Part shown: positions 7,600-27,536 of the stretch, piece by piece
Layout: each line of letters opens with the position of its first letter
Numbering within the stretch: the stretch's first letter is position 1
Made by a program: the position numbers and the translations under genes
Notes under the pieces: model-generated
What the model was told of the DNA's origin: nothing
The model's database searches: none
Seen by the model: only the letters and a program-made list of their open reading frames with translations
Assembly: GCF_001956985.1 (NCBI RefSeq)
Contig: NZ_CP019082.1
Location: 1,736,001 to 1,800,000, forward strand
Source: Paludisphaera borealis
Lineage (GTDB): Bacteria; Planctomycetota; Planctomycetia; Isosphaerales; Isosphaeraceae
Length of the DNA: 64,000 nucleotides
Direction of reading: 5' to 3'

Positions 7600-9073
7600 T
7601 CTTGCCTCGAGGGGTTGTTGACCAACGGTGTATCTCTCGGAAGTCCTTTTCCCTCACGACGCTATTTCATCAATCGCAGACCCGACGGATACGCGACTGG
7701 CGCTGTCAAAATTTCCGAATGAGTGTCACGAAGCCGTGCAGGGACTGTTCAGCCGAGGAGGCGGGCTGTCGGACATGACGATTCCCTCTGGTGCGAGGAG
7801 GTCGACAGTCCGATCGGACAATCCCACGAGGTCGGCGTCGGCCATCACCGACCCGATGCGTTCGCGGAGAGCGACCCTTCGGTCAGGGGGGCGAACGTCT
7901 CTCGCCCATGCACCGACGACGGGAGAGGCGGGGCGACCTTCTCAAACCTGGGGATGTGTGGGACGGGAATCGATCCCGTTCGGACGGCCGATGTCGCCAT
8001 AGTCGGCGAGATGCGCCTCGGACTCCGGTCTTTGAGGTGGAGGAGCTTCCTCTTGGGCGACTTGGAACACCCGATGGGTGACATGAGCAAATTGACAGCT
8101 CGGAATGCCGCTTGGCATTCGCGAGGGTGGAGAGGTTGTTCAAAGAGGAGGCCGTGGTAGGTTTCGGCCGTGCTTGGGCGCTTCTCTTCTCGCTGCGGCA
8201 GACCAAAAGGCAAGCCTATGGACAGGGGGCGAATTGGTGGTCTTGGAAATGGTATTAGGAGATCAAGTCAAGACTTCGTCCCCATGGGTTGCATGGAGCA
8301 GACCCCGAATGGAACTCAGCAATAGTGCCTGGAGAGAAAAATGGATGTAAGTAGGATTGATTGATCCCCTCTCCCACGGCAAGAACGCATTCTGACAATT
8401 CCTTCATCAATGTGTCAAGGAATTTCCATCTAGATTTCCGGGGAACTGCGTTGAATATGCATCCAAGATGCTCCAATGCGCGTGGTAGGTGTACTACAAG
8501 GACCGGATTTAACACAACTTGAGTCGAAGAGGTCGGAGGTGGATTGGACATCTCACTTTGCCGACTGGACTTGCGCAAACTATGGCTTTCGTACTGGGTG
8601 CGATGGTCCAACCGCGGCTTCCCTCTGGCCGCCGCCGTTCATGTTCGGAGAGGTTGGCGGCGGCTCGCTCTGTGGCGGCCGGCGTCAGGAGGAGGGAAGT
8701 CGGGCCGCCGGGAATGGGGGCCGCTGTCGTCGACCGCTCTCGCATAAGCCGGGTCTTGATCACCAGCTTGCCTCGCCGCCGCCGGACTTGCTTCCTGGCC
8801 ACTCCGTTCCAGGGGGCGGTTTCTCAACGCGGCGAAGAGGAAACCGAACGTCCAGCCGAGGAATACGGCGGACTCGCAACGGCGTCGCCGAAGGCGGCCC
8901 GCCAGAGGCTCCTCCCTTGAAGCCCCGAGGTGATCGGCGTCCGCCCGCTCGTCGGCACTTGAAATGGTCAGCCCCGAGTGATCGAATAAAGAGCGGCCTA
9001 TCCAGCCGTTGAAGCCCTCGTAGCTGTTGCGGACGGGGCACTGACTTCGCGGCATCGGGATCGACGAAACATT
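7600..9073. other. 1.5 kb spacer without a convincing gene
   Basis: No frame on either strand gives a recognisable protein. The stretch about 8255-8560 is less GC-rich than its surroundings and could contain the promoter and long leader of the polysaccharide operon. On the minus strand about 8640-8990 reads through a hydrophobic segment (SAVFLGWTFGFLFAALRNRP) that resembles the C-terminal membrane span of a chain-length regulator. It has no matching upstream domain, so at most it is a gene fragment. Confidence 0.5.
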
Positions 9074-10588
9074 ATGGATGCGTCTGGGCTCGATCTGTTC
9101 CGGAATGCCTGCGGTCTCGACGGCCCTCTGATTCTGGAATGCCGGAATCATGGCCGGGGCGAGACTCGTCTCGAACTCCACGAATTCGCGCGGCCTTTCG
9201 TCCTGGTGGGTCGAGATCCGCGATCCGACCTGCTTCTGGAAGGCGAAGAAGTGAGCCGTCTGCATGCCTATTTCCAGGCGGTGGGCAGCCGCCTGTTTTG
9301 CCTCGATTTGAGCAGCCGGACCGGAATAGCCCTGGCCGATCGATCGGGGAGTCTGGACCGCGGCTGGCTGGACCCTGATCGGGTTGTCAACATCGGCGGC
9401 TATGGAATCCGCAGGATCGTGGAAAAGGCCGGGAGTCGGGGCGTCGGATCGACGGTCGAGCCGCCCGGCACGACGCTGATCGAGCCGGTTGATCCTCCGC
9501 GGCTCGCTGAGGCGGCGTTGGAACTGCCGATCAGGACGGGGGAGGACCACGCGCAGTGGCGGATACCGAGCGTGGTGGCTCTGATCGGTCGGGCCCAGGG
9601 GTGTGATATGACCCTTACGGACGACAGCGTGTCGAGATTTCACGCGAGCTTCGTTCGAACGCCGGGGGGCCTTTGGGTGGTGGATCTTCGGTCTCGCGAG
9701 GGCGTGTTCGTCGGCGGGGTTCGTGTCCGCTGGGCGTGGCTCGACGACGGCGACTCCGTTCGGATCGGCCGCTTCACTTTCATCGTGCGCTGCGTGGTCC
9801 AGGCGCCCAAGTTCAGTCGTCAGAACCTCTCGATCTCCGCGGGGGCAATGCCTGTCGCCGCAACCGAATCGTCGCTGGCGACGTCGAGTCAGCGATCACG
9901 CGATCCCGGTCGGGCCTTGGCCGTGCGGCCGGGCCCGACCTCAGGCTCGTTGGCGACTACTCCACCGACTCTCGATCACCCCGTCTTGGCCACGTCCGTA
10001 CTTGGCGCCGAATCGACTCGCGCTTGGCAGTCCGCATCTCAGGACGGTCCGATGCCGCCGGCGATCTGGCAACAGCAGATGCAGCTGATGGAATCGTTCC
10101 ACAACGACATGATCCTTATGGTCCAAATGTTCGTCGCGATGCACCAGGAGCATCAGGCCACGATGCGCGTGGAGCTGGATCGGGTCGAGCAACTGACCCG
10201 CGAACTCAGCGGGCTCCAGGAGAAGCTCGCCCGAGCGTTGCCCCAGGAAGAGGACGCGACCTCCAAGTCGACCTCCAGGCCGCCGCGGCGCGAGCGACCC
10301 GCAGCCGGCGGAGGCTCGTCGGATGCCGTCCCGAAATCGAAAGGCCTGCGGCCGGCGACGCCTGAATCACGCGGTTCGAGTACGTCGGCAGGCCCTGAGT
10401 CGCGGACCATCGGGGCGACAGACGCGCCGGATACGCCTCAAGGAACTCTCCAGGGCCGCCGTGGGCCGGAGAGGTCCTCCGATCCGGAGGAGGCCCACGG
10501 CGTGCTGACCGAGCGGATTGCGACGCTCCAGCGCGAGCGCCAGGGTTACTGGCGGCAAATTATCAACCAAATCAGCAAGCGAGGTTGA
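9074..10588 (+). CDS. Protein with two FHA domains and a C-terminal coiled coil
   Basis: The 504-residue protein carries two forkhead-associated domains, which bind phosphothreonine peptides. The first (about residues 38-110) shows VGRDPRSDLLLEGEEVSRLH, and the second (about 165-235) shows IGRAQGCDMTLTDDSVSRFH with the conserved GR, S and RH positions. A linker rich in serine, proline and alanine follows. A predicted coiled coil runs at about 345-395 (MFVAMHQEHQATMRVELDR and LTRELSGLQEKLARAL), and the short tail LQRERQGYWRQIINQISKRG resembles the C-terminus of other planctomycete FHA proteins. It is convergent with the antiterminator gene. A scaffold role in Ser/Thr kinase signalling is inferred. 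Confidence 0.85.
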   Translation: MDASGLDLFRNACGLDGPLILECRNHGRGETRLELHEFARPFVLVGRDPRSDLLLEGEEVSRLHAYFQAVGSRLFCLDLSSRTGIALADRSGSLDRGWLDPDRVVNIGGYGIRRIVEKAGSRGVGSTVEPPGTTLIEPVDPPRLAEAALELPIRTGEDHAQWRIPSVVALIGRAQGCDMTLTDDSVSRFHASFVRTPGGLWVVDLRSREGVFVGGVRVRWAWLDDGDSVRIGRFTFIVRCVVQAPKFSRQNLSISAGAMPVAATESSLATSSQRSRDPGRALAVRPGPTSGSLATTPPTLDHPVLATSVLGAESTRAWQSASQDGPMPPAIWQQQMQLMESFHNDMILMVQMFVAMHQEHQATMRVELDRVEQLTRELSGLQEKLARALPQEEDATSKSTSRPPRRERPAAGGGSSDAVPKSKGLRPATPESRGSSTSAGPESRTIGATDAPDTPQGTLQGRRGPERSSDPEEAHGVLTERIATLQRERQGYWRQIINQISKRG

Positions 10589-17006: not shown

Positions 17007-18509
17007 GTGTCGAGGATGGAAGGTTCGGTTTCCGACGAGAGGCTGTACGTGTCGCTTTCGCGGTTCAATCTCCGGGTGCCGCTCGGCGTCCAGGTCGGCG
17101 GGGTCGCAGCCCTGTTCGTCGCGGCCCTTCTGGCCCTCTGGGCGACGGGCGCGTCGGTCGTCGCCCGGGAGCGTCGCCGATCCGACGCCAGGACTCTGCT
17201 CGTCCGCGCGGGGGACGAACTCGCCGCCCGGGGGTACGAGATCGTCGCCTGCGCCGGGGAGTTCCCGGACTACCCCGAGGAGCCGTCGCGAGACGAGCTT
17301 GACCGCGAGCTGTCTGTCCGGTCCGCGTCGGTCCTGGCGAAGCATCAGGGCGTCGAGGGGGGATACCTCGTCCTCAGGTTCAAGAGCTTCCTCGGCACCA
17401 CGTCCAATCAGAGAAGGCCCGTGAGCAAGGGAGACGAAGCTCCGAAGGAGCAACCGGCGCAAGAGCGGGGCGAGTCGAGTTTGCCGCCACTTGAGGCCGG
17501 CCTGATCGATATCCAGGTCGACGCCGCGATTCGCAAGCAGCGGGTGCTGTTCTCCGTCGAGGAGCTTGAGGGCGATCCCCCGGTGACCGTGGCCATCCGC
17601 ACGACGCCGATGATCGTCGGCAAACGCATCGTCGGGGCGAGCTGGGTGATGACCCGGCTGGTCGATCCGCTGTTCGTCGACCGCTCGCTCCAAGGTTATC
17701 GGCTGGCCACGGGGCTCGCGCTCGCGGGCATCATCCTGGCGTTCGCCCTCACCGCGAGCCTGGCCCTGACCGTCCGCCGCCAGGCGGCCGAGCGCGACCG
17801 GCTTCAGACCGAGCTGCGGCGGAGCGAGCGGCTGGCGGCGTTGGGGAAGCTGCTCGCGGGCGTGGCGCACGAGGTCCGCAACCCATTGGCCGGCATCCGG
17901 GCGATCACCCAGCTCTGGAGGCGCGGGCTCGGAATGGGCGACGAGGGGTTTGACCACCTCACCGACGAGGTCGACCGGCTGGAGGACATCGTCTCGCGGC
18001 TCTTGCAGTTCACGAGGGCCGACGCCCAAGACCTCGCCCCCGGCGATCTCAACTCGGTGGCGGCCGAGGCCGCTCGACTGGCCGAGGACCGCGCCCGGGA
18101 TCATGAAGTCCGCGTCGAGCTTGAGCAGACGCCTGACCTGCCGTCGGTGAACATGGCGGCGCCGGCGCTGGTGCAGGTCCTCCGCAACCTGACGACCAAC
18201 GCGCTCCAGGTGATGCCACGAGGCGGCGTGCTCCGGGTGTCGACCCATCTGGATCCGGCGCGCGGAACGGTCTCGGCGAGCGTGGCCGACGACGGGCCGG
18301 GGCTTTCGGCCGACGTGCTGTCGCACCTGTTCGAGCCGTTTTTCACCACGAAGGCGGAGGGGACCGGGCTGGGCCTGGCGATCGCCCGCGAGATCGCCCT
18401 CGCGCATCGCGGCGACCTTCAAGCCGAGAACCGCCCGAACGGCGGCGCCGTCTTCACCCTGGTTCTCCCTGTCGCCGAAGTCCCAGCCGTTGGAGGCGCC
18501 TTGTCATGA
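17007..18509 (+). CDS. Membrane sensor histidine kinase (NtrB/ZraS-like)
   Basis: The 500-residue kinase has a first membrane span at about residues 27-48, a periplasmic sensor domain with no recognised family, a second span at 231-256 and a cytoplasmic catalytic core. H288 in LLAGVAHEVRNPLAGIR is the phosphorylation site. The ATPase shows the N box NLTTNALQVMP, G1 DDGPGLS, F box FEPFFTTK and G2 GTGLGLAIA. No HAMP domain is evident, only a short charged helix. The start is a GTG preceded by AGAGGGG at 8 bases, with an in-frame ATG nine bases later as the alternative. The stop overlaps the regulator start (ATGA), so the pair is coupled. Confidence 0.92.
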   Translation: MSRMEGSVSDERLYVSLSRFNLRVPLGVQVGGVAALFVAALLALWATGASVVARERRRSDARTLLVRAGDELAARGYEIVACAGEFPDYPEEPSRDELDRELSVRSASVLAKHQGVEGGYLVLRFKSFLGTTSNQRRPVSKGDEAPKEQPAQERGESSLPPLEAGLIDIQVDAAIRKQRVLFSVEELEGDPPVTVAIRTTPMIVGKRIVGASWVMTRLVDPLFVDRSLQGYRLATGLALAGIILAFALTASLALTVRRQAAERDRLQTELRRSERLAALGKLLAGVAHEVRNPLAGIRAITQLWRRGLGMGDEGFDHLTDEVDRLEDIVSRLLQFTRADAQDLAPGDLNSVAAEAARLAEDRARDHEVRVELEQTPDLPSVNMAAPALVQVLRNLTTNALQVMPRGGVLRVSTHLDPARGTVSASVADDGPGLSADVLSHLFEPFFTTKAEGTGLGLAIAREIALAHRGDLQAENRPNGGAVFTLVLPVAEVPAVGGALS

Positions 18510-19912
18510 CGACCAGACCGACCGAAGCCGAGACGATCCTTGTCGCCGAGGACGACCGCGCGATCCGGTTCAGCCTCGCCTGTTCGCTGAAGGCCGAGGG
18601 CTACCGGGTGATCGAAGCCGGCGACGGTGACGAGGCCCTGGCCGGGATCGACCGCGAGCGACCCGACGCCGTCCTCCTGGATCTGAAGATGCCCGGCCGC
18701 GACGGCCTCGCCGTGCTCGCCGAGCTGGGCCCCGCGCTGGCTGACCTTCCGGTCGTCGTCATCACGGCGTACGGCGGCTCGGCCGCCGCGATCGAGGCGA
18801 TGCGGCGAGGGGCCTACGACTACCTGAGCAAGCCGTTCGATCTTGACGAGGTTCAACTGACCCTCAAGCGGGCGCTTCGTCAGCGCGCTCTGGCCTGTGA
18901 AGTCCGCGCTCTGCGGGCGAAGAGTGAAGAATCGAATGAAGAGGCCGACGATTCGGCCGACGCCGAGCCGGAGCTGATCGGACGCAGCGCCGTCATGCGC
19001 GAGGTTTTCAAGGCGATCGGTCTCGCTGCCGCGACGGACGCCGCCGTCTTGATCGTCGGCGAGAGCGGGACCGGCAAGGAGTTGGTCGCCGCCGCCCTGC
19101 ACCACCATTCCGACCGTTCGTCCGGCCCGTTCATCCGGGTCAACTGCGGAGCGCTTCCCGAGGGGCTGGTCGAGAGCGAGCTGTTCGGTCACGAGCGCGG
19201 CGCATTTTCCGGCGCCGACCGGCAGAAGCCCGGCCGGTTCGAGCGAGCCGCCGGCGGGACCATCCTTCTCGACGAAGTCGGCGAGCTTCCGCTCGCGGCT
19301 CAGGCGAAAATCCTTCGCGTCCTCCAGCAGCGGGAGTTCGAGCGGGTCGGTGGAACCGAGATCCTGCGGACCGACGCCCGGATCGTTTCGGCGACGCACC
19401 GCGACCTTTCGAAGGAGGTCGCCGCCGGACGGTTCCGCGAAGACCTCTACTATCGCCTGAACGTCGCCCGGATCGTCATCCCGCCCCTCCGCGACCGCCC
19501 CGACGACATCCCGCTCCTGGCCGAAGCCATCCTCCGCCGCGCGGAGCGAAGACACGGCTGGACCGAGCTTTCGCTCTCGCCCGAGGCGCTCATCGCCATC
19601 CGCGAGCGACCGTGGCCGGGGAACGTGCGGCAGCTTGAGAACGCCCTGTCGCGCGCGGCGATCGCCGCGCGAGGCCGGCCGATCCTCCCCGAACACCTCG
19701 ACGCCGACGAGCCGCTCGACCCGGCGGTTCCCGCAGCAGTCGACCCCGCCGGGCTGCTACCGCTCCGCGCGCTTCTGGCCGAAGTGGAGCGTCAGGCGAT
19801 CCGCCGCGCCCTGGTCGCATGCGGCGGCAACCGCACCAAGACCGCCGAACGCCTCGGCATCAGCCGCCGTCAACTCTTCGACAAGATCCGCGAGTACGAC
19901 CTGCACCCGTAG
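18506..19912 (+). CDS. NtrC-family sigma-54-dependent response regulator
   Basis: The 468-residue protein has an N-terminal receiver domain with phosphoacceptor D59 in VLLDLKMPGRDG. A sigma-54 activator AAA+ domain follows, with Walker A GESGTGKE at about 185-192, the GAFSGA loop that contacts sigma-54, and ILLDEVGELP as Walker B. A C-terminal Fis-type helix-turn-helix (KTAERLGISRRQLFDKIREY) completes it. It receives phosphate from the coupled kinase and activates sigma-54 promoters. The GAFxGA loop reads GAFSGA instead of the classical GAFTGA, a common natural variant. Its targets are not evident in the window. Confidence 0.93.
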   Translation: MTTRPTEAETILVAEDDRAIRFSLACSLKAEGYRVIEAGDGDEALAGIDRERPDAVLLDLKMPGRDGLAVLAELGPALADLPVVVITAYGGSAAAIEAMRRGAYDYLSKPFDLDEVQLTLKRALRQRALACEVRALRAKSEESNEEADDSADAEPELIGRSAVMREVFKAIGLAAATDAAVLIVGESGTGKELVAAALHHHSDRSSGPFIRVNCGALPEGLVESELFGHERGAFSGADRQKPGRFERAAGGTILLDEVGELPLAAQAKILRVLQQREFERVGGTEILRTDARIVSATHRDLSKEVAAGRFREDLYYRLNVARIVIPPLRDRPDDIPLLAEAILRRAERRHGWTELSLSPEALIAIRERPWPGNVRQLENALSRAAIAARGRPILPEHLDADEPLDPAVPAAVDPAGLLPLRALLAEVERQAIRRALVACGGNRTKTAERLGISRRQLFDKIREYDLHP

Positions 19913-20032: not shown

Positions 20033-20272
20033 TTACAGCATGCTCGGAGTCGGGTTATGGTCGACGGTCTCGGGGTCGTCGTCGGTGAGGGGATCGCCGG
20101 AATAGCCGAATTGGTTGTAGCTGGCCAGCGCGCTTCCTTTTTCAAACTTCCGGAGGCCGTCGAGTTCGGACAGGGTCGCCCAGCGCACGTACGAAAGCAG
20201 TTGCGGCTCGCTGTCGAAAATGGCCGCAAGCCGCTGGGGGGCTCCGGGGCGAGAACCATACAGATAGTACAT
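20033..20272 (-). CDS. Small 79-residue protein downstream of the molybdopterin fusion gene
   Basis: I do not recognise a family. ATG at 20272 is chosen over upstream starts because AGGA lies 8 bases before it and the upstream extension is arginine-rich and looks non-coding. The peptide reads MYYLYGSRPGAPQRLAAIFD, continues LLSYVRWATLSEL and ends acidic. No membrane span, signal peptide or cysteine motif is present. It lies 41 bases downstream of the cytochrome b561-molybdopterin gene on the same strand and may be the last gene of the nitric-oxide directon. Confidence 0.6.
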   Translation of the reverse strand: MYYLYGSRPGAPQRLAAIFDSEPQLLSYVRWATLSELDGLRKFEKGSALASYNQFGYSGDPLTDDDPETVDHNPTPSML

Positions 20273-20313
20273 ATGTTGCGTCCTATGAGCGATGCGCCGG
20301 GGAGGGGCGTCGA

Positions 20314-21918
20314 TCAGATGTTCGCCTGCTCGCCGAAGTATTCGTGATCCTCGTTGTAGCCCCCCTCCCCTTCTCCGAAATCCTTGTGGCTTTCGACGAA
20401 CTCGATGGCGCGAATCCACTTGACCATCTTGAAGCCGAGCTGGTTTTCGACTCGCAGCCTCAGGGGCGCGCCGTGCAAGGCGCTCAGCGGTTCGTCGTTC
20501 ATCTCGTAGGCCAGAATCGATTGCGGGTGGCGAAGGTTCTCGATCGCATGGCTGTCGTAGTACAGGCCCCCTTCGAGGCCCTCGCCGAACGAGTGGAAGA
20601 CGGCCATCCGCGCGTCAGACGTCGGGCGGACCAGATCGATCAGCTTCGACATCGGCGTCCCTCGCCAAGCCGCGACGCCCGACCAGCCCTGGATACAGTG
20701 GTGCAGCGTGACCTGCGACTTCACCCCCATCGCCCGGATCTCGTCCAGCGACAGCTCGACCGGGTTCTCGATCAGGCCGGAGATCTTGAGCCGGTAGTCC
20801 TTGAAATCGTCGGCGTTCAGGGTCGTCCATTCGTCGCTCGTCGGCAATTTCCCGTTCGGCCAGAAGAACGGCGAGATCTGATCGCGCGGGAATTCGGCCT
20901 CGGGCGCGGCGTCGTTGAGCAGCCGTTTCATGATCGGCGTGACGATCGCCCTGGCAATGTGCTGGATTGTTCGAGGTCGCCGCCACGCCGCCCAGTTCGC
21001 CAGTCCGTTGAAAGCCGCCACGACGACGATGCCCAGCAGGCCCAGGTAGATGCCGAGGCGTCGGCCGTCGTCCGTGCCGATGACGATGTGGTTCATGTTC
21101 CGGACGAGGCCGGTGAAGCTCACCATCGCGACGTGGACGACCAGAAAACCGAGAAAGGCGACCATCACGAGGAAATGGAGCGACCGGCCGATCTGCCGGT
21201 TGCCGGGTAGCCTGGGATACCAGGAGAACCGGTTCGTGAACGCCGGCGACATCGACGGCCCGGTCGCGATCGCCAGGGGCGCGAGCACGAAAATCGTGGA
21301 GAAATACGCGAGCTGCTGAAGCGCGTTGTAGCGGTAGAACCCGTTGGGCTCCGGAGGCATGTGGAGCGTGGCGTAATGGACGAAGATCGACCACGCCTCG
21401 GGGACGATCCGCCATGAGGTGGGGACGAGCCGTCGCCATTGCCCGGTTCCGAACAGCAGAATCACGAAGATCAGTCCGTTGCCGACCCAGAACAGTACGC
21501 TCAGGAAGTGCCAGTGCCGGGCCATGCCGACGGTATGTCGATATCCTGGAAGGCCGATCCAGGGAGACAGGTGGCGCGAGTCGTTCTTGGACGTCCAGAC
21601 GCGGTCCGTGGGAACCTCGATCGGCGTCGCGCGGAGCCATTCCGTGCCGGGGGTGCAGTGGACGTTCCAGTAGAGCCGAGGGTGGTCCGCGAGGATTTGC
21701 AGGCCGCTGCGAATCAGGATGATGAGGAAAAACAGGTTCACATAATGGTGGATGCGGAGCCAGGCCGGAAAACCGGTGGGCATGTCGACATCGGGGGGCG
21801 CCGACGTTTCGGCCGCCACCGACGGCAAACCGAACGCGGCCCACTGGGCGTAGGCCGCGACGGTTGGAGCCACCACCAGGGCGATGAACACGAGAAGAGT
21901 GTCGCGTCGGATTCGCAT
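20314..21918 (-). CDS. Cytochrome b561-type membrane domain fused to a sulfite-oxidase-like molybdopterin domain
   Basis: The ATG at 21918 gives 534 residues. Upstream in-frame sequence is arginine/proline-rich and overlaps the next gene antiparallel in composition, so it is rejected. Residues 1-330 carry a signal or anchor helix, then about five membrane spans with histidines expected to bind haem b (LRIHHYVNLFF, MARHWHFLSV, HFLVMVAFLGFLVVHVAM). Residues 370-534 resemble the YedY/sulfite oxidase molybdopterin fold. VTLHHCIQGWSGVAAWRG holds the cysteine expected to ligate molybdenum. In SorA- or YedY/YedZ-type systems these functions are on separate proteins. The substrate is unknown. Confidence 0.8.
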   Translation of the reverse strand: MRIRRDTLLVFIALVVAPTVAAYAQWAAFGLPSVAAETSAPPDVDMPTGFPAWLRIHHYVNLFFLIILIRSGLQILADHPRLYWNVHCTPGTEWLRATPIEVPTDRVWTSKNDSRHLSPWIGLPGYRHTVGMARHWHFLSVLFWVGNGLIFVILLFGTGQWRRLVPTSWRIVPEAWSIFVHYATLHMPPEPNGFYRYNALQQLAYFSTIFVLAPLAIATGPSMSPAFTNRFSWYPRLPGNRQIGRSLHFLVMVAFLGFLVVHVAMVSFTGLVRNMNHIVIGTDDGRRLGIYLGLLGIVVVAAFNGLANWAAWRRPRTIQHIARAIVTPIMKRLLNDAAPEAEFPRDQISPFFWPNGKLPTSDEWTTLNADDFKDYRLKISGLIENPVELSLDEIRAMGVKSQVTLHHCIQGWSGVAAWRGTPMSKLIDLVRPTSDARMAVFHSFGEGLEGGLYYDSHAIENLRHPQSILAYEMNDEPLSALHGAPLRLRVENQLGFKMVKWIRAIEFVESHKDFGEGEGGYNEDHEYFGEQANI

Positions 21919-21935
21919 GTGCGACGTCGTTTCCA

Positions 21936-22208
21936 CTATTGCGCGGCCGGCGCGGGGTGAACGGCCCTCTTGGCGTCGAGGAAGGCTCGGGCGTCGTCGA
22001 TCGCGAGTTGGACGGCCTCGCGATGCGACGGGTCGGGGACGCAGTCGAGGTCGGCCGCCATCCGCTCGGCGAGGTGCTCGACCGCCTGTTCGGCGGACGG
22101 GCCCTCGTGCTGCATCTCGGGGAAATTCTGGTGATGAACGCGGAACATGTGGGAGCTGCAAGCGTCGCAGATTTCTATGATGATGATCCGTCGTGGGTCG
22201 TTACTCAT
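21936..22208 (-). CDS. Small 90-residue protein with a CDACSSH motif
   Basis: I do not recognise a family. The N-terminus reads MSNDPRRIIIIEICDACSSH, giving a CxxC pair followed by histidines (HHQNF) that could hold a metal or form a redox disulfide. The rest is helical and acidic. It sits 17 bases upstream of the cytochrome-molybdopterin fusion gene on the same strand, which implies co-transcription and possibly a maturation or electron-transfer role. No signal peptide is present, so it is probably cytoplasmic. Confidence 0.6.
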   Translation of the reverse strand: MSNDPRRIIIIEICDACSSHMFRVHHQNFPEMQHEGPSAEQAVEHLAERMAADLDCVPDPSHREAVQLAIDDARAFLDAKRAVHPAPAAQ

Positions 22209-22360
22209 CGATCGGTCCTCCTCACGGCGTGCAACGAAGGGATTCCAGGGTGACGAGCCGTCCCCCCGACGCCGCCGTCAGTCGGAAAGGAAGGCCCGGA
22301 TTCGGGGCGGAGCCCACCACCGAAATGGCGCGGACTCCGCGTGGTTTGCCTCCGAGGTCA

Positions 22361-22942
22361 TCAGTCCTTTTTCCTCCCCTTGCCCTTGCTCGGTTCACCG
22401 GGCGCGTCGGTTTCGGGTTGCTCGGCGGCGTCGCAGTAGATGAAGCCGGGAGCGTCGCTCGCCGGGAACGACTCCTGGGACGCCTGATCGACGAGATCGG
22501 TCGCCGCGTCCGAGTCGAAATCGACCCGCCCACCGCGACCTTGCGCCAGCTCGGACGCGCCGTCGACTGGGCTCGCCTGGTCGCAATGGGGCGGTCGCTC
22601 GGCGAGTGGCGAGTACCGCGGGAAGGTGATGGTCAGGAGGAGCGAGGCGTCTTCGATCCCCGTGACCGAGTGGGATTGCTCGCCTTGAAGGTAGAGTAAT
22701 TCACCGGCGCCCAGTTCGCGCCGGACGCCTTCGGACGTGAAAGCGACCCGGCCCTCCAGGCACTGGACCGAGATCTCCCCGTGGGTTGCGTGGGTGGGGA
22801 TCTCCTTGCCCTGGGGGATCACCAACCTGATGATTTCCAAAGCCTCGGTCTTGACCAGGACCGTGGTTCTCGCGCCGGCCAGATCCTTCGCGAGCGGTCG
22901 GACGTCGATTACCTCGCCCGGCTTCGCATGCGGGATCGCCAT
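22361..22942 (-). CDS. Cupin-domain protein with an ESFPASD tail motif
   Basis: Residues about 25-110 form a single cupin barrel: IPQGKEIPTHATHGEISVQ gives the first motif with its histidines, and LLYLQGEQSHSVTGIEDA gives the second. A linker and the motif VDQASQESFPASDAPGF follow. VxxASxESFPASDxP is a short conserved module found at the ends of many small stress-related proteins. The tail is Lys/Gly-rich. The cupin may bind a metal, but the activity is unknown. It lies downstream of the nitric oxide reductase on the same strand, 166 bases away, in the same directon. Confidence 0.8.
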   Translation of the reverse strand: MAIPHAKPGEVIDVRPLAKDLAGARTTVLVKTEALEIIRLVIPQGKEIPTHATHGEISVQCLEGRVAFTSEGVRRELGAGELLYLQGEQSHSVTGIEDASLLLTITFPRYSPLAERPPHCDQASPVDGASELAQGRGGRVDFDSDAATDLVDQASQESFPASDAPGFIYCDAAEQPETDAPGEPSKGKGRKKD

Positions 22943-23108
22943 GACACTCCCTCCTCCTTACGCTCCCCCACCGCCGGCAGTGGGCGATGGGGGAGCGAGA
23001 CGGTCGAACAGCAGTGACAATCGCCAACTCTTACGATACTCGATCCTCGGTGCGGCTGTCATCGGCCGGCCCTCTCGTTGGGACGCGCCACGACTCGGCC
23101 GTCGGCCG

Positions 23109-25484
23109 TTAGCGGGCCGACCCGAACTCCGGCTTCGCCGCGGTCGGCAGCAAGGGCTCAAGCGTGGGGTCTTCCTCGGACCGGATCGACCAGCCGGTCT
23201 TCAGACCCAGGACGAACCAACCCAACGCGAACATTCCGATGGCGAAGATCGTATCGCCGATGGCCCGCATCCAGCGGAGCGTGTGCATCGTCGGCGTCTG
23301 CATGAATTCAGCCGACCGGGCGTACCAAGTGCCGGTCTCGACGCTGGCCCAGGTCTGCAACAGCCCCACCGGCAGCAGGCTGAGCACCACCATCAAGGCG
23401 AGGCCGAGGTTGATCGTCCAGAACGCGAACGAAAGCACTCCGGTCCTCCAGACGTGGTGCGTCGCCAGCCCCTTCAGGCAGAAGAGCATCAGGCCGATGC
23501 CGAGCATGCCGTAGACGCCGAAGAGCGCCGTGTGGCCGTGAACGGCCGTCGTGTTCAGCCCTTGCATGTAGTAGAGCGCGATCGGCGGATTGATCAGGAA
23601 TCCGAACAGCCCGGCGCCGACGAGGTTCCAGAACGCAACTCCGACGAAGAAGTAGATCGGCCACTTGTAGCCGCCGATCCAGGGGCGAGCCCGACTCATC
23701 GTCAGGTTTTCATACGCTTCGAAGCCGATCAAGACCAACGGCACCACCTCCAGCGAGCTGAACGTCGCACCCAACGCCAGGATGCCCGTCGGGGTGCCGG
23801 CGAAGTAGATGTGGTGGAACGTGCCGAGGATGCCGCCGAGCAAGAAGACGCTCGTCGAGAACAGGACCGCGGCGGTGGCCGTGGCCGTGCGGAGCAGCCC
23901 CATTCGGGTGAACAGGAACGCGATCACGACGGTCGCGAAGACCTCGAAGAAGCCTTCGACCCACAGGTGGACCACCCACCATCGCCAGTATTCGGCGACC
24001 GCCAGGTTCGACTGTCGGTGCCAGAACAACCCGGGGACGTAAAACAACGGGATGGCCGCCGAGGCCAGCAAGAACAGCGCCAGCAGGTGGCGGTTCTCTC
24101 CGGACCGGAACGCGGGCCACATCGCGCGGACCATCAGCATCAGCCACAAGAACAGGCCGACGGTCAGGAACGCCTGCCAGAACCGCCCGAGGTCGACGTA
24201 CTCGTATCCCTGGTGTCCGAACCAGAAGTTCACCGTGTTGCCGAGCCGTTGCTGGACGGCGAACCATTGCCCCGCCATCGAGCCCACGACGATGATCAGC
24301 AGGCAGACGAACAGAAAGTTGACCCCCAGCCGCTGGAACTTCGGCTCGTATCCCGAGACCGCCGGCGCCATGAACAGGCCGGTGGCCAGCCAGGCGGTGG
24401 CGATCCAGAAGATGGCCAACTGCGTATGCCAGGTGCGGGTCACCGCGTACGGCAGCCATTTCGCCAGGGGGATGCCGTAGAAACCCGAGCCCTCGACGCC
24501 GTAGTGGGCCGTCAGGACGCCGAATCCGATCTGCGCGATGATCAGCGCCATCACGACCCAGAAGTATTTCAAGGTCGCCCTCATAGAGGGAGTCGGCCGC
24601 AGGGCCAGGAGCGGGTCGACTTCCGGCAGCTCGTGGCTATCGTCCCGCTTGCCCTGCTGGATGGCGAAGTACAGGGCCAGCAAGCCGATCCCCGCCAGCA
24701 AGACTATGAAACTGATCAACGACCAGACGAGCAGCGTGGCGGCCGGCCGGTTGTCGATGAGCGTCTCGGACGGCCAGTTGTTGGTGTAGGTGATCGCCTG
24801 GCCCGGACGTTCGGTCGAGCAGACCCACGACGACCAGAAGAAGAAGTCGTTCATCTGCGCCATCCGCGCCGGGTCGCGGATCGCGTTCGCGGGGATCGCG
24901 TAGGCGTCGCGCAGCTCGTCGACCGCGGGATCGTCGCCGAAGATCGAGGCGTAGTGCTCGCTGAGCACGCCGATCGCCTGGGCCCGCAGCGGCGAGATCA
25001 CCAAGTCGCCCGTCTCGGCGTTATAAGTGTTGGTGCGAAGCTCGGCCTTCAGACGCGCCTTCAGCCCCGCCTGCTGCTCGGGCGGAAGCGCGGCGTAGAG
25101 TTGGGCGTGGTCTTGATGGGCCCAGTGGTCGAGCAGCCAGATCGCCTCGCGGTGAAGCCAGTCGGCCGACCAGTCGGGGGCGACGTACGCCCCGTGGCCC
25201 CATACCGAGCCGACCTGCTGACCGCCCATCGACTGCCAGACGTTTTGGCCGTCCTTGACGTCCTGGCCCGTGAACAGCACCTTGCCTTCCGTCGTGACCA
25301 CGCGCCGCGGGATCGGCGGGGCCATCCGGTAGACTTCGCCGCCGTAGTAGCCGAGTACCGCAAACGACGGCACCATCACCGCCGCCAGGAGGAGCCATAG
25401 CCCTGTATACTTGACGGGCGGGTGAACCTCCAGGTGGGGGGGATCGTCCGCGCTTGTTGGAAATACGTCGTTCACACCGTTCAT
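23109..25484 (-). CDS. norZ: Quinol-dependent nitric oxide reductase (qNOR)
   Basis: The 791-residue protein is a single-subunit quinol NO reductase that reduces two NO to N2O at the membrane. An N-terminal span and periplasmic cytochrome-c-like fold without CxxCH are followed by the 12-helix haem-copper-oxidase core. Expected ligands are visible: TRTWHTQLAIFW (haem b His), HLWVEGFFEVFAT (FeB His and conserved Glu), TFHHIYFAG (two FeB His) and AVHGHTALFGVYG (haem b and b3 His). Start ATG 25484 follows GAGGA. The frame extends 26 codons upstream with basic, unlikely sequence. Next to it are a truncated haemoglobin and a cupin gene, consistent with NO defence or denitrification. Confidence 0.95.
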   Translation of the reverse strand: MNGVNDVFPTSADDPPHLEVHPPVKYTGLWLLLAAVMVPSFAVLGYYGGEVYRMAPPIPRRVVTTEGKVLFTGQDVKDGQNVWQSMGGQQVGSVWGHGAYVAPDWSADWLHREAIWLLDHWAHQDHAQLYAALPPEQQAGLKARLKAELRTNTYNAETGDLVISPLRAQAIGVLSEHYASIFGDDPAVDELRDAYAIPANAIRDPARMAQMNDFFFWSSWVCSTERPGQAITYTNNWPSETLIDNRPAATLLVWSLISFIVLLAGIGLLALYFAIQQGKRDDSHELPEVDPLLALRPTPSMRATLKYFWVVMALIIAQIGFGVLTAHYGVEGSGFYGIPLAKWLPYAVTRTWHTQLAIFWIATAWLATGLFMAPAVSGYEPKFQRLGVNFLFVCLLIIVVGSMAGQWFAVQQRLGNTVNFWFGHQGYEYVDLGRFWQAFLTVGLFLWLMLMVRAMWPAFRSGENRHLLALFLLASAAIPLFYVPGLFWHRQSNLAVAEYWRWWVVHLWVEGFFEVFATVVIAFLFTRMGLLRTATATAAVLFSTSVFLLGGILGTFHHIYFAGTPTGILALGATFSSLEVVPLVLIGFEAYENLTMSRARPWIGGYKWPIYFFVGVAFWNLVGAGLFGFLINPPIALYYMQGLNTTAVHGHTALFGVYGMLGIGLMLFCLKGLATHHVWRTGVLSFAFWTINLGLALMVVLSLLPVGLLQTWASVETGTWYARSAEFMQTPTMHTLRWMRAIGDTIFAIGMFALGWFVLGLKTGWSIRSEEDPTLEPLLPTAAKPEFGSAR

Positions 25485-25563
25485 CTTTCCTCGTCTCTCA
25501 GGTGATGCGCGTACCGGTAGCGGGCCCGACTTGCGGGTGTACCTGATTCGCTGTGGATTCAAC

Positions 25564-26022
25564 TTAGTCGTCGAGCCTCAAGACTTTCGTCATGCCTTCC
25601 CGCATCCGCAGGGCGCGGAGGACGAACGCATCGGCCTGCCGGGGCGTGCACAGGTCGCGCACCGTGGCCTCGAACAGGTCAACCCAGCGGCGGAAATGAT
25701 CGCCGCTGAGCTCCTCGATCGGGCGGTGCCGCTCGACCGGTCGCCCCGAATAACGCCCCGACCTCAGAAGCGCCGCCGCCCAGAAGTCGGTCATCCGGCC
25801 CAGGTGGACGTCCCAGTCGTGGACGTAGCGATCGAACACCGGTCCCAGCTTCTCATCCAGCCGCGCCCGCTGGTAGAACTCCACCACCACGTCGCGGATC
25901 AGTTCCACGGTGATCTCGTGAGCGTCGGCGTGCGGGACGCCGACCCCTTCGGTCATCGGCAGACCGTAGGAACGCGTCGGGGGCGAGCCGACCGCATCAC
26001 GAGAACTCGATGAGGATTCCAT
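25564..26022 (-). CDS. Group III truncated haemoglobin
   Basis: ATG 26022 follows AAGGA at a 7-base spacing and gives 152 residues. The globin core begins at ITVELIRDVVVEFYQRARLD, continues FDRYVHDWDVHLGRMTDFW and ends DHFRRWVDLFEATVRDL. The histidine in DHFRRW fits the proximal F8 position, and the WD..L...FW pattern is typical of group III (trHb3) proteins. These haem proteins bind O2 and NO and often sit beside NO reductases. It lies 79 bases upstream of the qNOR start, in the same direction, and 31 bases downstream of the CLLCH protein gene. Role in NO handling is inferred from context. Confidence 0.88.
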   Translation of the reverse strand: MESSSSSRDAVGSPPTRSYGLPMTEGVGVPHADAHEITVELIRDVVVEFYQRARLDEKLGPVFDRYVHDWDVHLGRMTDFWAAALLRSGRYSGRPVERHRPIEELSGDHFRRWVDLFEATVRDLCTPRQADAFVLRALRMREGMTKVLRLDD

Positions 26023-26053
26023 GCGTTGATCCTTATTCCAAACGTTGCGATGT

Positions 26054-27400
26054 TCAGCGCGACGCTTTCCAGTAGTCCGGCAGGTCCGGCTTGGTCTCGC
26101 GGAGGATCTCGAGAATCGCCTCGCGGTCGGCCGAGGCGAGTTGAGGGTCGTCTTTGCCGTTCCCACGACCGTTGAGGATGTCCCACAAACGCCGGTAGAC
26201 GTAGTCCTTCACTTCACCGGGGAGCGAATTGAAGGCCCGGGTGTAGATCAGGTAGCTGCACGGGTGGCGGAACAGCCGGGTCTGGAGGTCGAGGTCGCGG
26301 AGTGATCGGCCCTTCGAGTCCTTGGGCCCTCGCGCGGCGAAGTCGGCCGCGAACGTCGACGTGCCTTCGATGCGATCGGTCAACTGGATCTCGTCGCGGA
26401 GCAGCATGTACTGCACGACGTCCTCGCCGACGCCTCGAATCCGCGACCGCGCGCTGTCGGACGGTTCATCGGCCGGGCGGTCGAGCGCCTTGTTCATCTC
26501 GCGCTCGTAGTGCAGCGCCATCCGCGTTTCCAGCCCGGCGCGGGCCAGCCGGTTGAGCATCCCCGTCTGGTGCTCCAGCACCATCAGGGCGACGATGTCG
26601 CTGTGCGGCGTCGGGTAGAACGAGATCGTCAGCCGATCCTTGAGGTCGACCACGTTCACGCCTTTGGTGTTGTCGATTTCCTCGGGCCGCTTCGCCCCCC
26701 GAGTGATCATGTTGCCCATATGCTTCTGCTTGCCGCTCGTGCCGGTCACGTACCACCCCCCCCAGCGCTCGGCGAGCGGGCTGCTGTGATCGGTGCGGAA
26801 CGAACCGCTGGACAGCAAGGGATCGCCGCGGCCGTCGACGAACAGGGAACGGACGAGGTGGCCCGGCATCCCCCGATTGGCCGACGAACTGTGACAGAGC
26901 AGGCACGCTTCCGTCTGCCGCTGCGGCGCGGGCTTCTCCTCGTCGGTCTGGTCGATCGTGTAGAACGCCGTGCCGATGACGTCGTCGACCGCCGAGATCT
27001 CGATCACCCGGCCCCGAAGGCAGAAGCCGACCATCACGTCGTCGTTGAAGTAGACCGCGCGCGGCGTCTTGGGAGAGATACGCTCGCGCTGGAGACTCGT
27101 CTTCGAGAACACCAGGACCTGCGACGACTCGGAGATGTCCAGGGCGCGGAGCAGCGATCGCAGGTAGCCGTGCTCCGGCTCGTATTCAAGCCGCGCCGTT
27201 CCCGCGGCGAGCCTCTCTTTAAGGTCCGTCACCGCGTTCTTCGGAGTCGCCTCGCTATAATGGATCGGAGCGCGCTCGATCTCCTGCCCCGTCGCCGTCC
27301 CGGCGGCGAACGCGGTGAATCCGATCAGGACGACGCCAAGCCCCAGCCCCCGTCGGGAAGCCGCGACTCCGTGAACCGAAAGGGAGTGACCGCCTGTCAT
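26054..27400 (-). CDS. Exported cytochrome-c-like protein with one CLLCH motif
   Basis: The 448-residue protein has an N-terminal signal sequence (LGLGVVLIGFTAFAAGTATG). One haem c attachment motif, CLLCHSSSANRG, lies at about residues 167-178. A possible distal ligand lies in the methionine/histidine-rich SGKQKHMGNMITRG stretch. The C-terminal half is helical and may contain a degenerate second domain (FRHPCSYLIYTRAFNSLPG). It is the first gene after the promoter and NsrR-like box at 27491-27536, and precedes the truncated haemoglobin and qNOR. It may pass electrons in the periplasm, but no characterised homologue comes to mind. Confidence 0.75.
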   Translation of the reverse strand: MTGGHSLSVHGVAASRRGLGLGVVLIGFTAFAAGTATGQEIERAPIHYSEATPKNAVTDLKERLAAGTARLEYEPEHGYLRSLLRALDISESSQVLVFSKTSLQRERISPKTPRAVYFNDDVMVGFCLRGRVIEISAVDDVIGTAFYTIDQTDEEKPAPQRQTEACLLCHSSSANRGMPGHLVRSLFVDGRGDPLLSSGSFRTDHSSPLAERWGGWYVTGTSGKQKHMGNMITRGAKRPEEIDNTKGVNVVDLKDRLTISFYPTPHSDIVALMVLEHQTGMLNRLARAGLETRMALHYEREMNKALDRPADEPSDSARSRIRGVGEDVVQYMLLRDEIQLTDRIEGTSTFAADFAARGPKDSKGRSLRDLDLQTRLFRHPCSYLIYTRAFNSLPGEVKDYVYRRLWDILNGRGNGKDDPQLASADREAILEILRETKPDLPDYWKASR

Positions 27401-27490
27401 CGATCTGCCTCGCTTATGCGTTCAAGGTCTCGCGACCCGACCGTGGGTGGTCGGGGCCGCGCTCGAATGCCCGCCGCCAGGGGCGATTTT

Positions 27491-27536
27491 AATGTGCATT
27501 CTATATGCATGTTATCGCGGCCCGGCCGTTTGTCAA
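27491..27536 (-). promoter_or_regulatory. Promoter with an overlapping NsrR-like NO-responsive operator
   Basis: On the minus strand TTGACA (27531-27536) and TAACAT (27509-27514) are 16 bases apart, a good sigma-70-type promoter. The 23-base segment 27491-27513 overlaps this -10 box and has the form AA-N2-TGCAT-N5-ATGCA-N2-TT. That is the spacing and core of the NsrR operator, whose consensus has ATGCAT and ATRCAT half-sites. NsrR is an Rrf2-family iron-sulfur repressor inactivated by NO. The site lies about 90 bases upstream of the first gene of a group that includes qNOR and truncated haemoglobin. No Rrf2 gene is in the window. Confidence 0.6.

What the first reader, a model, noticed from the sequence alone, without database searches (positions are those of the whole stretch)
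20033..27536. NO-defence directon headed by a promoter with an NsrR-like operator
Minus-strand genes for a CLLCH cytochrome-like protein, group III truncated haemoglobin, qNOR, cupin, small CDACSSH protein, cytochrome b561-molybdopterin fusion and small tail protein run in one direction. The only strong promoter (TTGACA-N16-TAACAT) is overlapped at 27491-27513 by an inverted repeat AA-N2-TGCAT-N5-ATGCA-N2-TT that aligns with the NsrR operator core. This ties together an NO-responsive set and suggests that the CLLCH protein, cupin and molybdopterin fusion take part in NO or nitrite metabolism.
Basis: partly seen in the sequence, partly recalled or inferred. Interest (0 to 1): 0.6.

Follow-up and report, generated by a model that had tools for sequence, protein, structure and literature searches.

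The report
Nitric-oxide repressor regulon in planctomycetes
A row of nitric-oxide defence genes in a planctomycete bacterium is headed by a DNA switch that matches the known NsrR nitric-oxide repressor site, and the genome carries that repressor with the same switch in front of its own gene, so a familiar stress circuit appears to run here and to include several proteins of unknown role.

Summary
The interpretation survives the tests that could be run. The 7.65 Mb genome has one other site within 2 mismatches; it too is perfect and stands before an NsrR-type Rrf2 gene, divergent from a second copy of the cupin. Of 45 family (Isosphaeraceae) genomes 16 have nsrR; all 16 have a box upstream of it, and in 13 the neighbour across the box is the CLLCH protein (10) or haemoglobin-qNOR (3). 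Three genomes, this one included, keep boxes at targets far from nsrR; seven related qNORs from nsrR-less genomes have none. Promoter and operator are conserved together. So this is most likely an NsrR-repressed NO-detoxification operon: a known circuit, in a phylum for which I found no described NsrR regulon. Five of the 16 nsrR genomes lack a related qNOR, so CLLCH is the commoner partner. That is the real news: a CxxCH protein family widespread in Planctomycetota, without Pfam family or clear solved fold, repeatedly beside Rrf2 regulators. NO response and the roles of CLLCH, cupin and molybdopterin proteins are untested.

The parts
27531..27536 (-). -35 element TTGACA
   Evidence: TTGACA with at most one mismatch 16 or 17 nt before TAATAT/TAACAT in 17 of 19 boxes examined, this one included
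27509..27514 (-). -10 element TAACAT, overlapped by the operator
   Evidence: only 4 of 6 to TATAAT
27491..27513 (.). NsrR-type operator AATGTGCATTCTATATGCATGTT
   Evidence: same register as the published core ATGyAT-N5-ATrCAT (PMC1274295, passages): 11 of 12 core positions, reached in 0 of 300 shuffles
26054..27400 (-). CLLCH protein, 448 aa, signal-like N terminus (by eye), one CxxCH; no Pfam/NCBIfam match
25564..25956 (-). group III truncated haemoglobin, 130 aa
   Evidence: PDB 2ig3, E 2.5e-13
23109..25484 (-). quinol-dependent nitric oxide reductase (qNOR), 791 aa
   Evidence: PF22085 and PF00115; PDB chains named nitric oxide reductase subunit B, e.g. 6qq5, E about 1e-257
22361..22942 (-). 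cupin (Cupin_2-like, 27.0 bits against cut-off 27.2), 47% identical over 95 aa to the cupin divergent from nsrR at G000:C1:479 kb
21936..22208 (-). 90-aa CDACSSH protein, no credible family match
   Evidence: also in the operon of G009
20314..21918 (-). cytochrome b561-type membrane domain fused to an Oxidored_molyb (MsrP/sulfite dehydrogenase-like) domain, 534 aa
   Evidence: PF01292 and PF00174; NCBIfam MsrP, SorA, SorT far under their cut-offs
20033..20272 (-). 79-aa tail protein, no family match
   Evidence: 72% identical copy beside the nsrR box in G003

Best explanation
This is an NsrR-repressed nitric-oxide detoxification operon. NsrR, made from a gene 1.28 Mb away on the same contig (G000:C1:478465-478926), holds an iron-sulfur cluster and in that form sits as a dimer on the 23-bp operator, which covers the -10 element, so RNA polymerase cannot start. 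NO damages the cluster, NsrR lets go, and the qNOR (2 NO to N2O), the truncated haemoglobin, the CLLCH haem-type protein and the downstream genes are made. The same box before nsrR makes the circuit self-limiting and also controls a second cupin. Shown here: operator, promoter, regulator type, their conservation and co-occurrence. Inferred: cluster, binding, repression, NO response, and the roles of CLLCH, cupin, CDACSSH, molybdopterin fusion and tail protein.
For: Only 2 places within 2 mismatches in the genome, both perfect, the second 73 nt before the nsrR start codon. The Rrf2 protein falls in the group with E. coli NsrR (96/91), apart from the other four strong Rrf2 proteins of the genome and E. 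coli IscR; three Cys and Asp8 invariant in 16 of 16 family members, Asp8 being the fourth cluster ligand of S. coelicolor NsrR (PMC5411485, abstract start in listing); best PDB match NsrR. Box upstream of 16 of 16 family nsrR genes by an outside motif (10 or 11 of 12 core positions, each reached in 0 to 11 of 300 shuffles). Across the box lies CLLCH in 10 genomes and haemoglobin-qNOR in 3. G009 has the operon in one row. Detached targets with a box: window, G038, G022. 0 of 7 related qNORs (58-77% identical) from nsrR-less genomes and 0 of 8 second-clade qNORs reach 10 of 12. Promoter footprint in 17 of 19.
Against: NCBIfam scores the regulator below its NsrR cut-off (130.8 against 182 bits) and nearly as high for RirA (125.8); no RirA sequence was in the tree. 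5 of the 16 nsrR genomes (G003, G016, G023, G026, G037) have no related qNOR: G003 and G037 none at all at E 1e-50, the other three only the second-clade type without a box; in G017 the related qNOR is broken. 7 of 29 nsrR-less family genomes have a box-like site with up to 1 mismatch somewhere (one perfect), against 3 of 45 genomes for the reversed control, though these score 9 to 23 against 31 to 40 with a matrix trained on 15 nsrR boxes and the window box. nsrR is not next to this operon. No expression data.
Confidence: 0.9

Rival explanations
1. The regulator is an iron or iron-sulfur sensor of RirA/IscR type: the same box controls these genes in response to iron or cluster status, and NO acts only indirectly.
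For: The NCBIfam RirA model scores almost as high as NsrR (125.8 v 130.8 bits, both under cut-off). Haem and iron enzymes would fit an iron sensor. Five of 16 nsrR genomes lack a related qNOR.
Against: The box has the published NsrR register and core; targets include qNOR and a truncated haemoglobin; Asp8 and Cys as in NsrR; groups with E. coli NsrR, not IscR. No RirA reference was in the tree.
Confidence: 0.07
2. The box is a chance or unrelated palindrome and the genes are a fortuitous directon.
For: Box-like sites also occur in 7 of 29 nsrR-less family genomes.
Against: 16 of 16 nsrR upstream regions, 3 of 3 detached targets, 0 of 15 control qNORs; promoter conserved with it; the operon in one row in another genus.
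Confidence: 0.01
3. NsrR controls only the first transcript (CLLCH-haemoglobin-qNOR); cupin, CDACSSH, molybdopterin fusion and tail are a separate unit with another promoter and role.
For: Gaps of 166 and 152 nt around the cupin gene; a 9-of-12 promoter-like site at 23062-23033 between qNOR and cupin; near nsrR the fusion is found whole only in G009 and as a remnant in G003, of 16 loci searched, several of them cut by contig ends.
Against: A cupin is next to boxed genes in G000 (twice), G009, G029, G030, G031 and G038; G009 keeps CDACSSH, two cupins and the fusion behind qNOR.
Confidence: 0.3

Closest known systems
NsrR regulons of beta/gamma-proteobacteria, Bacillus and Streptomyces (PMC1274295, passages)
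   Same: Rrf2 regulator, operator core ATGyAT-N5-ATrCAT, norB among the predicted targets in Neisseria and some Burkholderia and others
   Different: That paper names Hmp as the most conserved target, with hcp, dnrN and nnrS common; none of the seven window genes is one of these by Pfam. Here the targets are group III haemoglobin, qNOR, CLLCH protein and cupins; many half-sites read ATGGAT; T stands before ATG, possibly like the Neisseria variant that paper mentions
nsrRST of Thermus thermophilus (PMC5748679, passages)
   Same: NsrR divergent from a NO reductase promoter, and a Cupin_2 protein (NsrT) in the cluster, which the authors suppose helps repair the cluster of NsrR
   Different: The Thermus site is CTTGACCNNGGTCATGG and NsrR also activates; none of the window genes is an NsrS-type ScdA protein
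S. coelicolor NsrR (PMC9338935, passages; PMC5411485, abstract start in listing)
   Same: 23-bp operator, autoregulation, small regulon, Asp8 and three Cys
   Different: Streptomyces targets are hmpA1, hmpA2 and nsrR

Membership tests
NsrR (Rrf2 family NO sensor) | Rrf2 domain with three conserved Cys | tested here: met
   PF02082 122 bits; C91, C99, C105 invariant in 16 of 16
NsrR (Rrf2 family NO sensor) | Asp8 as fourth cluster ligand | tested here: met
   D8 invariant in 16 of 16, also in E. coli NsrR; ligand role from PMC5411485 abstract start
NsrR (Rrf2 family NO sensor) | groups with a characterised NsrR, apart from IscR | tested here: met
   split 96/91, the 28-row side holding E. coli NsrR; E. 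coli IscR is on a long branch; no RirA row
NsrR (Rrf2 family NO sensor) | score above NCBI's curated NsrR cut-off | tested here: not met
   130.8 bits against 182 for PRK11014; this lowers naming by that model; the best PDB match is NsrR
NsrR regulon | operator ATGyAT-N5-ATrCAT at a promoter | tested here: met
NsrR regulon | NO-detoxification targets | tested here: met
   in the window operon: qNOR and group III haemoglobin; in 5 of 16 nsrR genomes no related qNOR
NsrR regulon | binding, and release by NO | not testable with these tools
   needs EMSA or RNA-seq
qNOR | NorB cytochrome c-like N domain and haem-copper domain in one chain | tested here: met
   PF22085 85-264 and PF00115 329-772 of the long ORF; PDB matches
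group III truncated haemoglobin | sequence relative of a solved group III truncated haemoglobin | tested here: met
   2ig3 E 2.5e-13; PF01152 only 14.3 bits against 21
cytochrome P460 (for CLLCH) | same fold around a CxxCH haem | tested here: inconclusive
   VIA-align Z 2.5-2.8 over 98-107 residues in 7 of 21 rows, with unrelated chains at Z up to 3.4; no Foldseek match under E 0.85; hhalign probability 6.4, and a control keeping only the CxxCH end reached the score in 10 of 60

The most novel reading that the evidence does not exclude
The CLLCH protein founds a new class of secreted c-type haem proteins dedicated to nitrogen-oxide chemistry (NO or hydroxylamine turnover, or periplasmic electron supply) across Planctomycetota: it lies next to NsrR, to a second Rrf2 subfamily (CPLGL...LCPLH), to protoglobins, Tll0287-like proteins and sometimes qNOR, stays with NsrR even where qNOR is missing, and has no Pfam family and no clear solved fold; a weak structural resemblance to cytochrome P460 is not excluded.
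Probability: 0.35. Interest if true: 0.7.

Novelty: new member of a known kind. Interest (0 to 1): 0.5.

Why it matters
It gives planctomycetes of the Isosphaeraceae a defined, testable NO-response circuit, with named relatives that carry it (Singulisphaera acidiphila DSM 18658, Singulisphaera sp. GP187), and places several unassigned gene families in it. NO reduction to N2O bears on greenhouse-gas budgets, so knowing what switches it on in planctomycetes would be of use (inference).

Tried and rejected
Cytochrome P460 as the family of CLLCH: suggested by weak rows; PF16694 is not among the families matched by any of the 72 members at E up to 1; hhalign against 12 family P460 proteins gave E 0.0058 but probability 6.4. 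Fully column-shuffled P460 alignments reach at most 18.4 against 26.1 (0 of 60), but keeping only the CxxCH end reaches it in 10 of 60, so the signal is mostly the haem motif. Left as a lead. The first structure model from 10 similar sequences was poor (pLDDT 53.5); the second from 72 rows reached 89.6. Folding one domain of it alone was not possible (both predictions used). A listing of PF13442 cytochromes in the genome, meant as a further control, was not used. Extra box-like sites in nsrR genomes (G018:C30, G020:C253, G023:C385) score 16 to 23 and their targets were not looked at; one at G016:C1175:259 (about 29) faces no target that I recognise. An operator for the other Rrf2 type (TTGGAT-N6-ATCCAA) reaches 10 of 12 in 5 of 19 loci, but also in 7 of 51 CLLCH loci without a listed divergent Rrf2, so it is only a hint. 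Alignment A3 uses 71 of the 80 loci; I left out L158, L160, L221, L223, L224, L227, L229, L231 and L232 to shorten the list, without a fixed rule. The tree uses 10 of the 16 family NsrR proteins, 16 of the 24 matches from outside the family and 5 of the second Rrf2 type.

Literature: NsrR with Planctomycetes gave 5 papers, none on a planctomycete NsrR regulon by title and abstract start; NsrR with Planctomycetota gave 1, which reports by BLAST that NsrR homologues occur in magnetotactic Planctomycetota (PMC11014258, passages), so NsrR in the phylum is in print; Planctomycetes, regulon, Rrf2 and nitric oxide together gave 0; Isosphaeraceae with nitric oxide reductase gave 3, none on regulation by title and abstract start; two wider searches listed none on planctomycete NsrR.
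Full report
What is there. The window lies in contig C1 of a 7.65 Mb genome. Its family is Isosphaeraceae: family member G037 has a contig of the same length as NC_019892.1, Singulisphaera acidiphila DSM 18658 (lineage). The haemoglobin, qNOR and b561-molybdopterin assignments hold.

Regulator in the same genome. PF02082 finds five strong Rrf2 genes and one weak. A scan of the whole genome for the box with up to 2 mismatches finds two places, both perfect: the window site and G000:C1:479000-479022. The second lies between an Rrf2 gene of 154 aa (minus, start codon 73 nt away) and a cupin gene (plus). That cupin is 47% identical over 95 residues to the cupin of the window operon. The Rrf2 protein has CFDLETNTCPIAPAC and Asp8; the PDB search ranks S. 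coelicolor NsrR first (E 4.3e-23). A tree of 37 Rrf2 proteins puts it on the side of E. coli NsrR (96/91) and the other four strong Rrf2 proteins of the genome on the other. NCBIfam scores it below its NsrR cut-off and almost equally for RirA.

Conservation. In 45 family genomes the box with up to 1 mismatch is found in 19, its reversed control in 3. NsrR orthologues (E up to 1e-25) are in 16 of 45. Of the 19, 12 have nsrR and 7 do not; in G023 the 1-mismatch site is not the nsrR box. With a motif from outside this clade, the core ATGYAT-N5-ATRCAT after PMC1274295 (passages), the best site within 300 nt upstream of nsrR matches 10 or 11 of 12 positions in 16 of 16; single shuffled regions reach the same in 0 to 11 of 300.

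What faces nsrR across the box: CLLCH in G009, G016, G017, G018, G019, G020, G022, G023, G037, G038 (10); haemoglobin-qNOR-cupin in G029, G030, G031 (3); a cupin in G000; a 26-residue remnant of the fusion and the tail gene in G003; nothing that I recognise in G026. The CLLCH proteins beside nsrR are 61-78% identical to the window's; those elsewhere are at most 54%, short fragments apart. G009 (L077) has box, CLLCH, haemoglobin, qNOR, CDACSSH, two cupins and the fusion in one row, the content of the window operon without the tail gene. So the window operon looks like the ancestral nsrR neighbour, parted from nsrR, that kept its operator (inference).

The regulon test. Three genomes hold a target far from nsrR: the window, G038 (haemoglobin-qNOR-cupin, with an nsrR fragment of 37 residues across the box, L093) and G022 (qNOR, L103). 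All three have a site with 10 or 11 of 12 core positions within 500 nt. Seven related qNORs (58-77% identical) from genomes without nsrR (G001, G024, G025, G032, G039, G040, G042) and eight of a second clade (39-41% identical) have at most 9 of 12. Of the 26 qNOR places, five more lie next to the nsrR box (G009, G018, G029, G030, G031) and three were not scored because their contigs are cut (G017:C398, G019:C43, G020:C510).

Limits of the link to NO. Of the 16 nsrR genomes, eight have a related qNOR in a boxed operon (G000, G009, G018, G022, G029, G030, G031, G038); in G019 the operon is split over two contigs; in G020 it is cut; in G017 it is broken; G003, G016, G023, G026 and G037 have none. 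CLLCH beside nsrR, in 10, is thus as common as qNOR in the regulon.

Promoter. Aligned on the box, TTGACA with at most one mismatch stands 16 nt before TAATAT/TAACAT in 13 of 19 sites and 17 nt before it in 4 more; other shifts from -5 to +5 give 0. The operator covers this -10 element: the layout expected of a repressor.

How it works. From work on other NsrR proteins (PMC9338935 passages; PMC5411485 abstract start): the [4Fe-4S] form binds a 23-bp site and NO breaks the complex. Here that would free a qNOR (NO to N2O), a group III haemoglobin, the CLLCH protein and the rest. The steps shown here are at sequence level only.

The CLLCH protein. Its N terminus looks like a signal (by eye), and it has one CxxCH, invariant in 72 of 72 aligned members, with His227 and His277 also invariant. 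No Pfam or NCBIfam family matches the window protein; members give only scattered weak Pfam matches, best E 0.0033; PDB sequences give nothing under E 0.1. A scan of genome contigs kept 80 best loci, nearly all Planctomycetota by title. An Rrf2 gene lies within 6 kb in 32 of the 80: NsrR-type with box in 8, an NsrR-like protein in L210, and in 23 another subfamily with CPLGL...LCPLH or close to it. A cluster of 8 ORFs just upstream is represented by a protoglobin, and one of 12 nearby ORFs by a weak Tll0287-like protein; only one member of each was scanned. qNOR is near in L159 (broken), L165, L166 and L189. With about five Rrf2 genes in 7.6 Mb such linkage is well above chance (estimate, not computed). 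The AlphaFold model from 72 sequences has pLDDT 89.6, but Foldseek finds no clear relative and VIA-align only weak rows, the top two unrelated and seven of cytochrome P460, which sequence tests did not confirm.

Beyond the family. In 392 genomes drawn from the phylum, 25 have an NsrR relative at E up to 1e-25, two of them of this family. I fetched 20 of the 24 places outside the family. 4 of the 20 have a site scoring above 20 with the Isosphaeraceae matrix: L141, 1 mismatch, between NsrR and a haemoglobin-like protein; L149, AAGATGTATTTGTAATACATGTT, before nsrR; L151, before a haemoglobin-like gene followed by nsrR; and L146, some 580 nt before nsrR. The other 16 do not, so the operator has drifted or is absent there.

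Novelty. NsrR circuits, and norB as a target, are known; NsrR homologues in Planctomycetota are in print as BLAST hits (PMC11014258, passages). I found no description of an NsrR regulon or operator in planctomycetes in the held library. A cupin with NsrR has a precedent in Thermus (PMC5748679, passages). New are the phylum, the operator-promoter footprint and the attached protein families, above all CLLCH.

Noticed in passing
L178, L175, L191, L209, L192 upstream of protoglobin-like ORF and CLLCH: A second Rrf2 subfamily (CPLGL...LCPLH) is divergent from a protoglobin-like ORF and CLLCH and has a TTGGAT-N6-ATCCAA repeat (10 to 12 of 12 positions in 5 of 19 loci; also in 7 of 51 control loci).
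   Followed up: partly
L141:8711-8733 and 8782-9372; L151:9424-9446: NsrR relatives in other planctomycete families sit beside truncated-haemoglobin-like genes (by eye) with a box between or in front.
   Followed up: partly
L093:11824-12040: G038 carries a short nsrR fragment across the box from its detached haemoglobin-qNOR-cupin operon, perhaps a fossil of the split of the regulon.
   Followed up: no
L081:634-1145: G003 has nsrR and box followed only by a 26-residue remnant of the molybdopterin fusion and the tail gene: the operon seems deleted from within.
   Followed up: partly
G000:C1:6459445-6460677 and 240013-241200: Two further CLLCH paralogues (46% and 39% identical) elsewhere in the genome, context not read.
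   Followed up: no
window 18506-19912 (+): A sigma-54 type response regulator (receiver, AAA+, Fis domains) ends 120 nt from the tail gene in convergent orientation.
   Followed up: no
G004:C1:2563436-2563458: A 0-mismatch box in a family genome without a detected nsrR; none of the query genes lies within about 8 kb.
   Followed up: no
G037 (Singulisphaera acidiphila), L080: nsrR, box and CLLCH are kept although no qNOR was found in the genome at E 1e-50.
   Followed up: no
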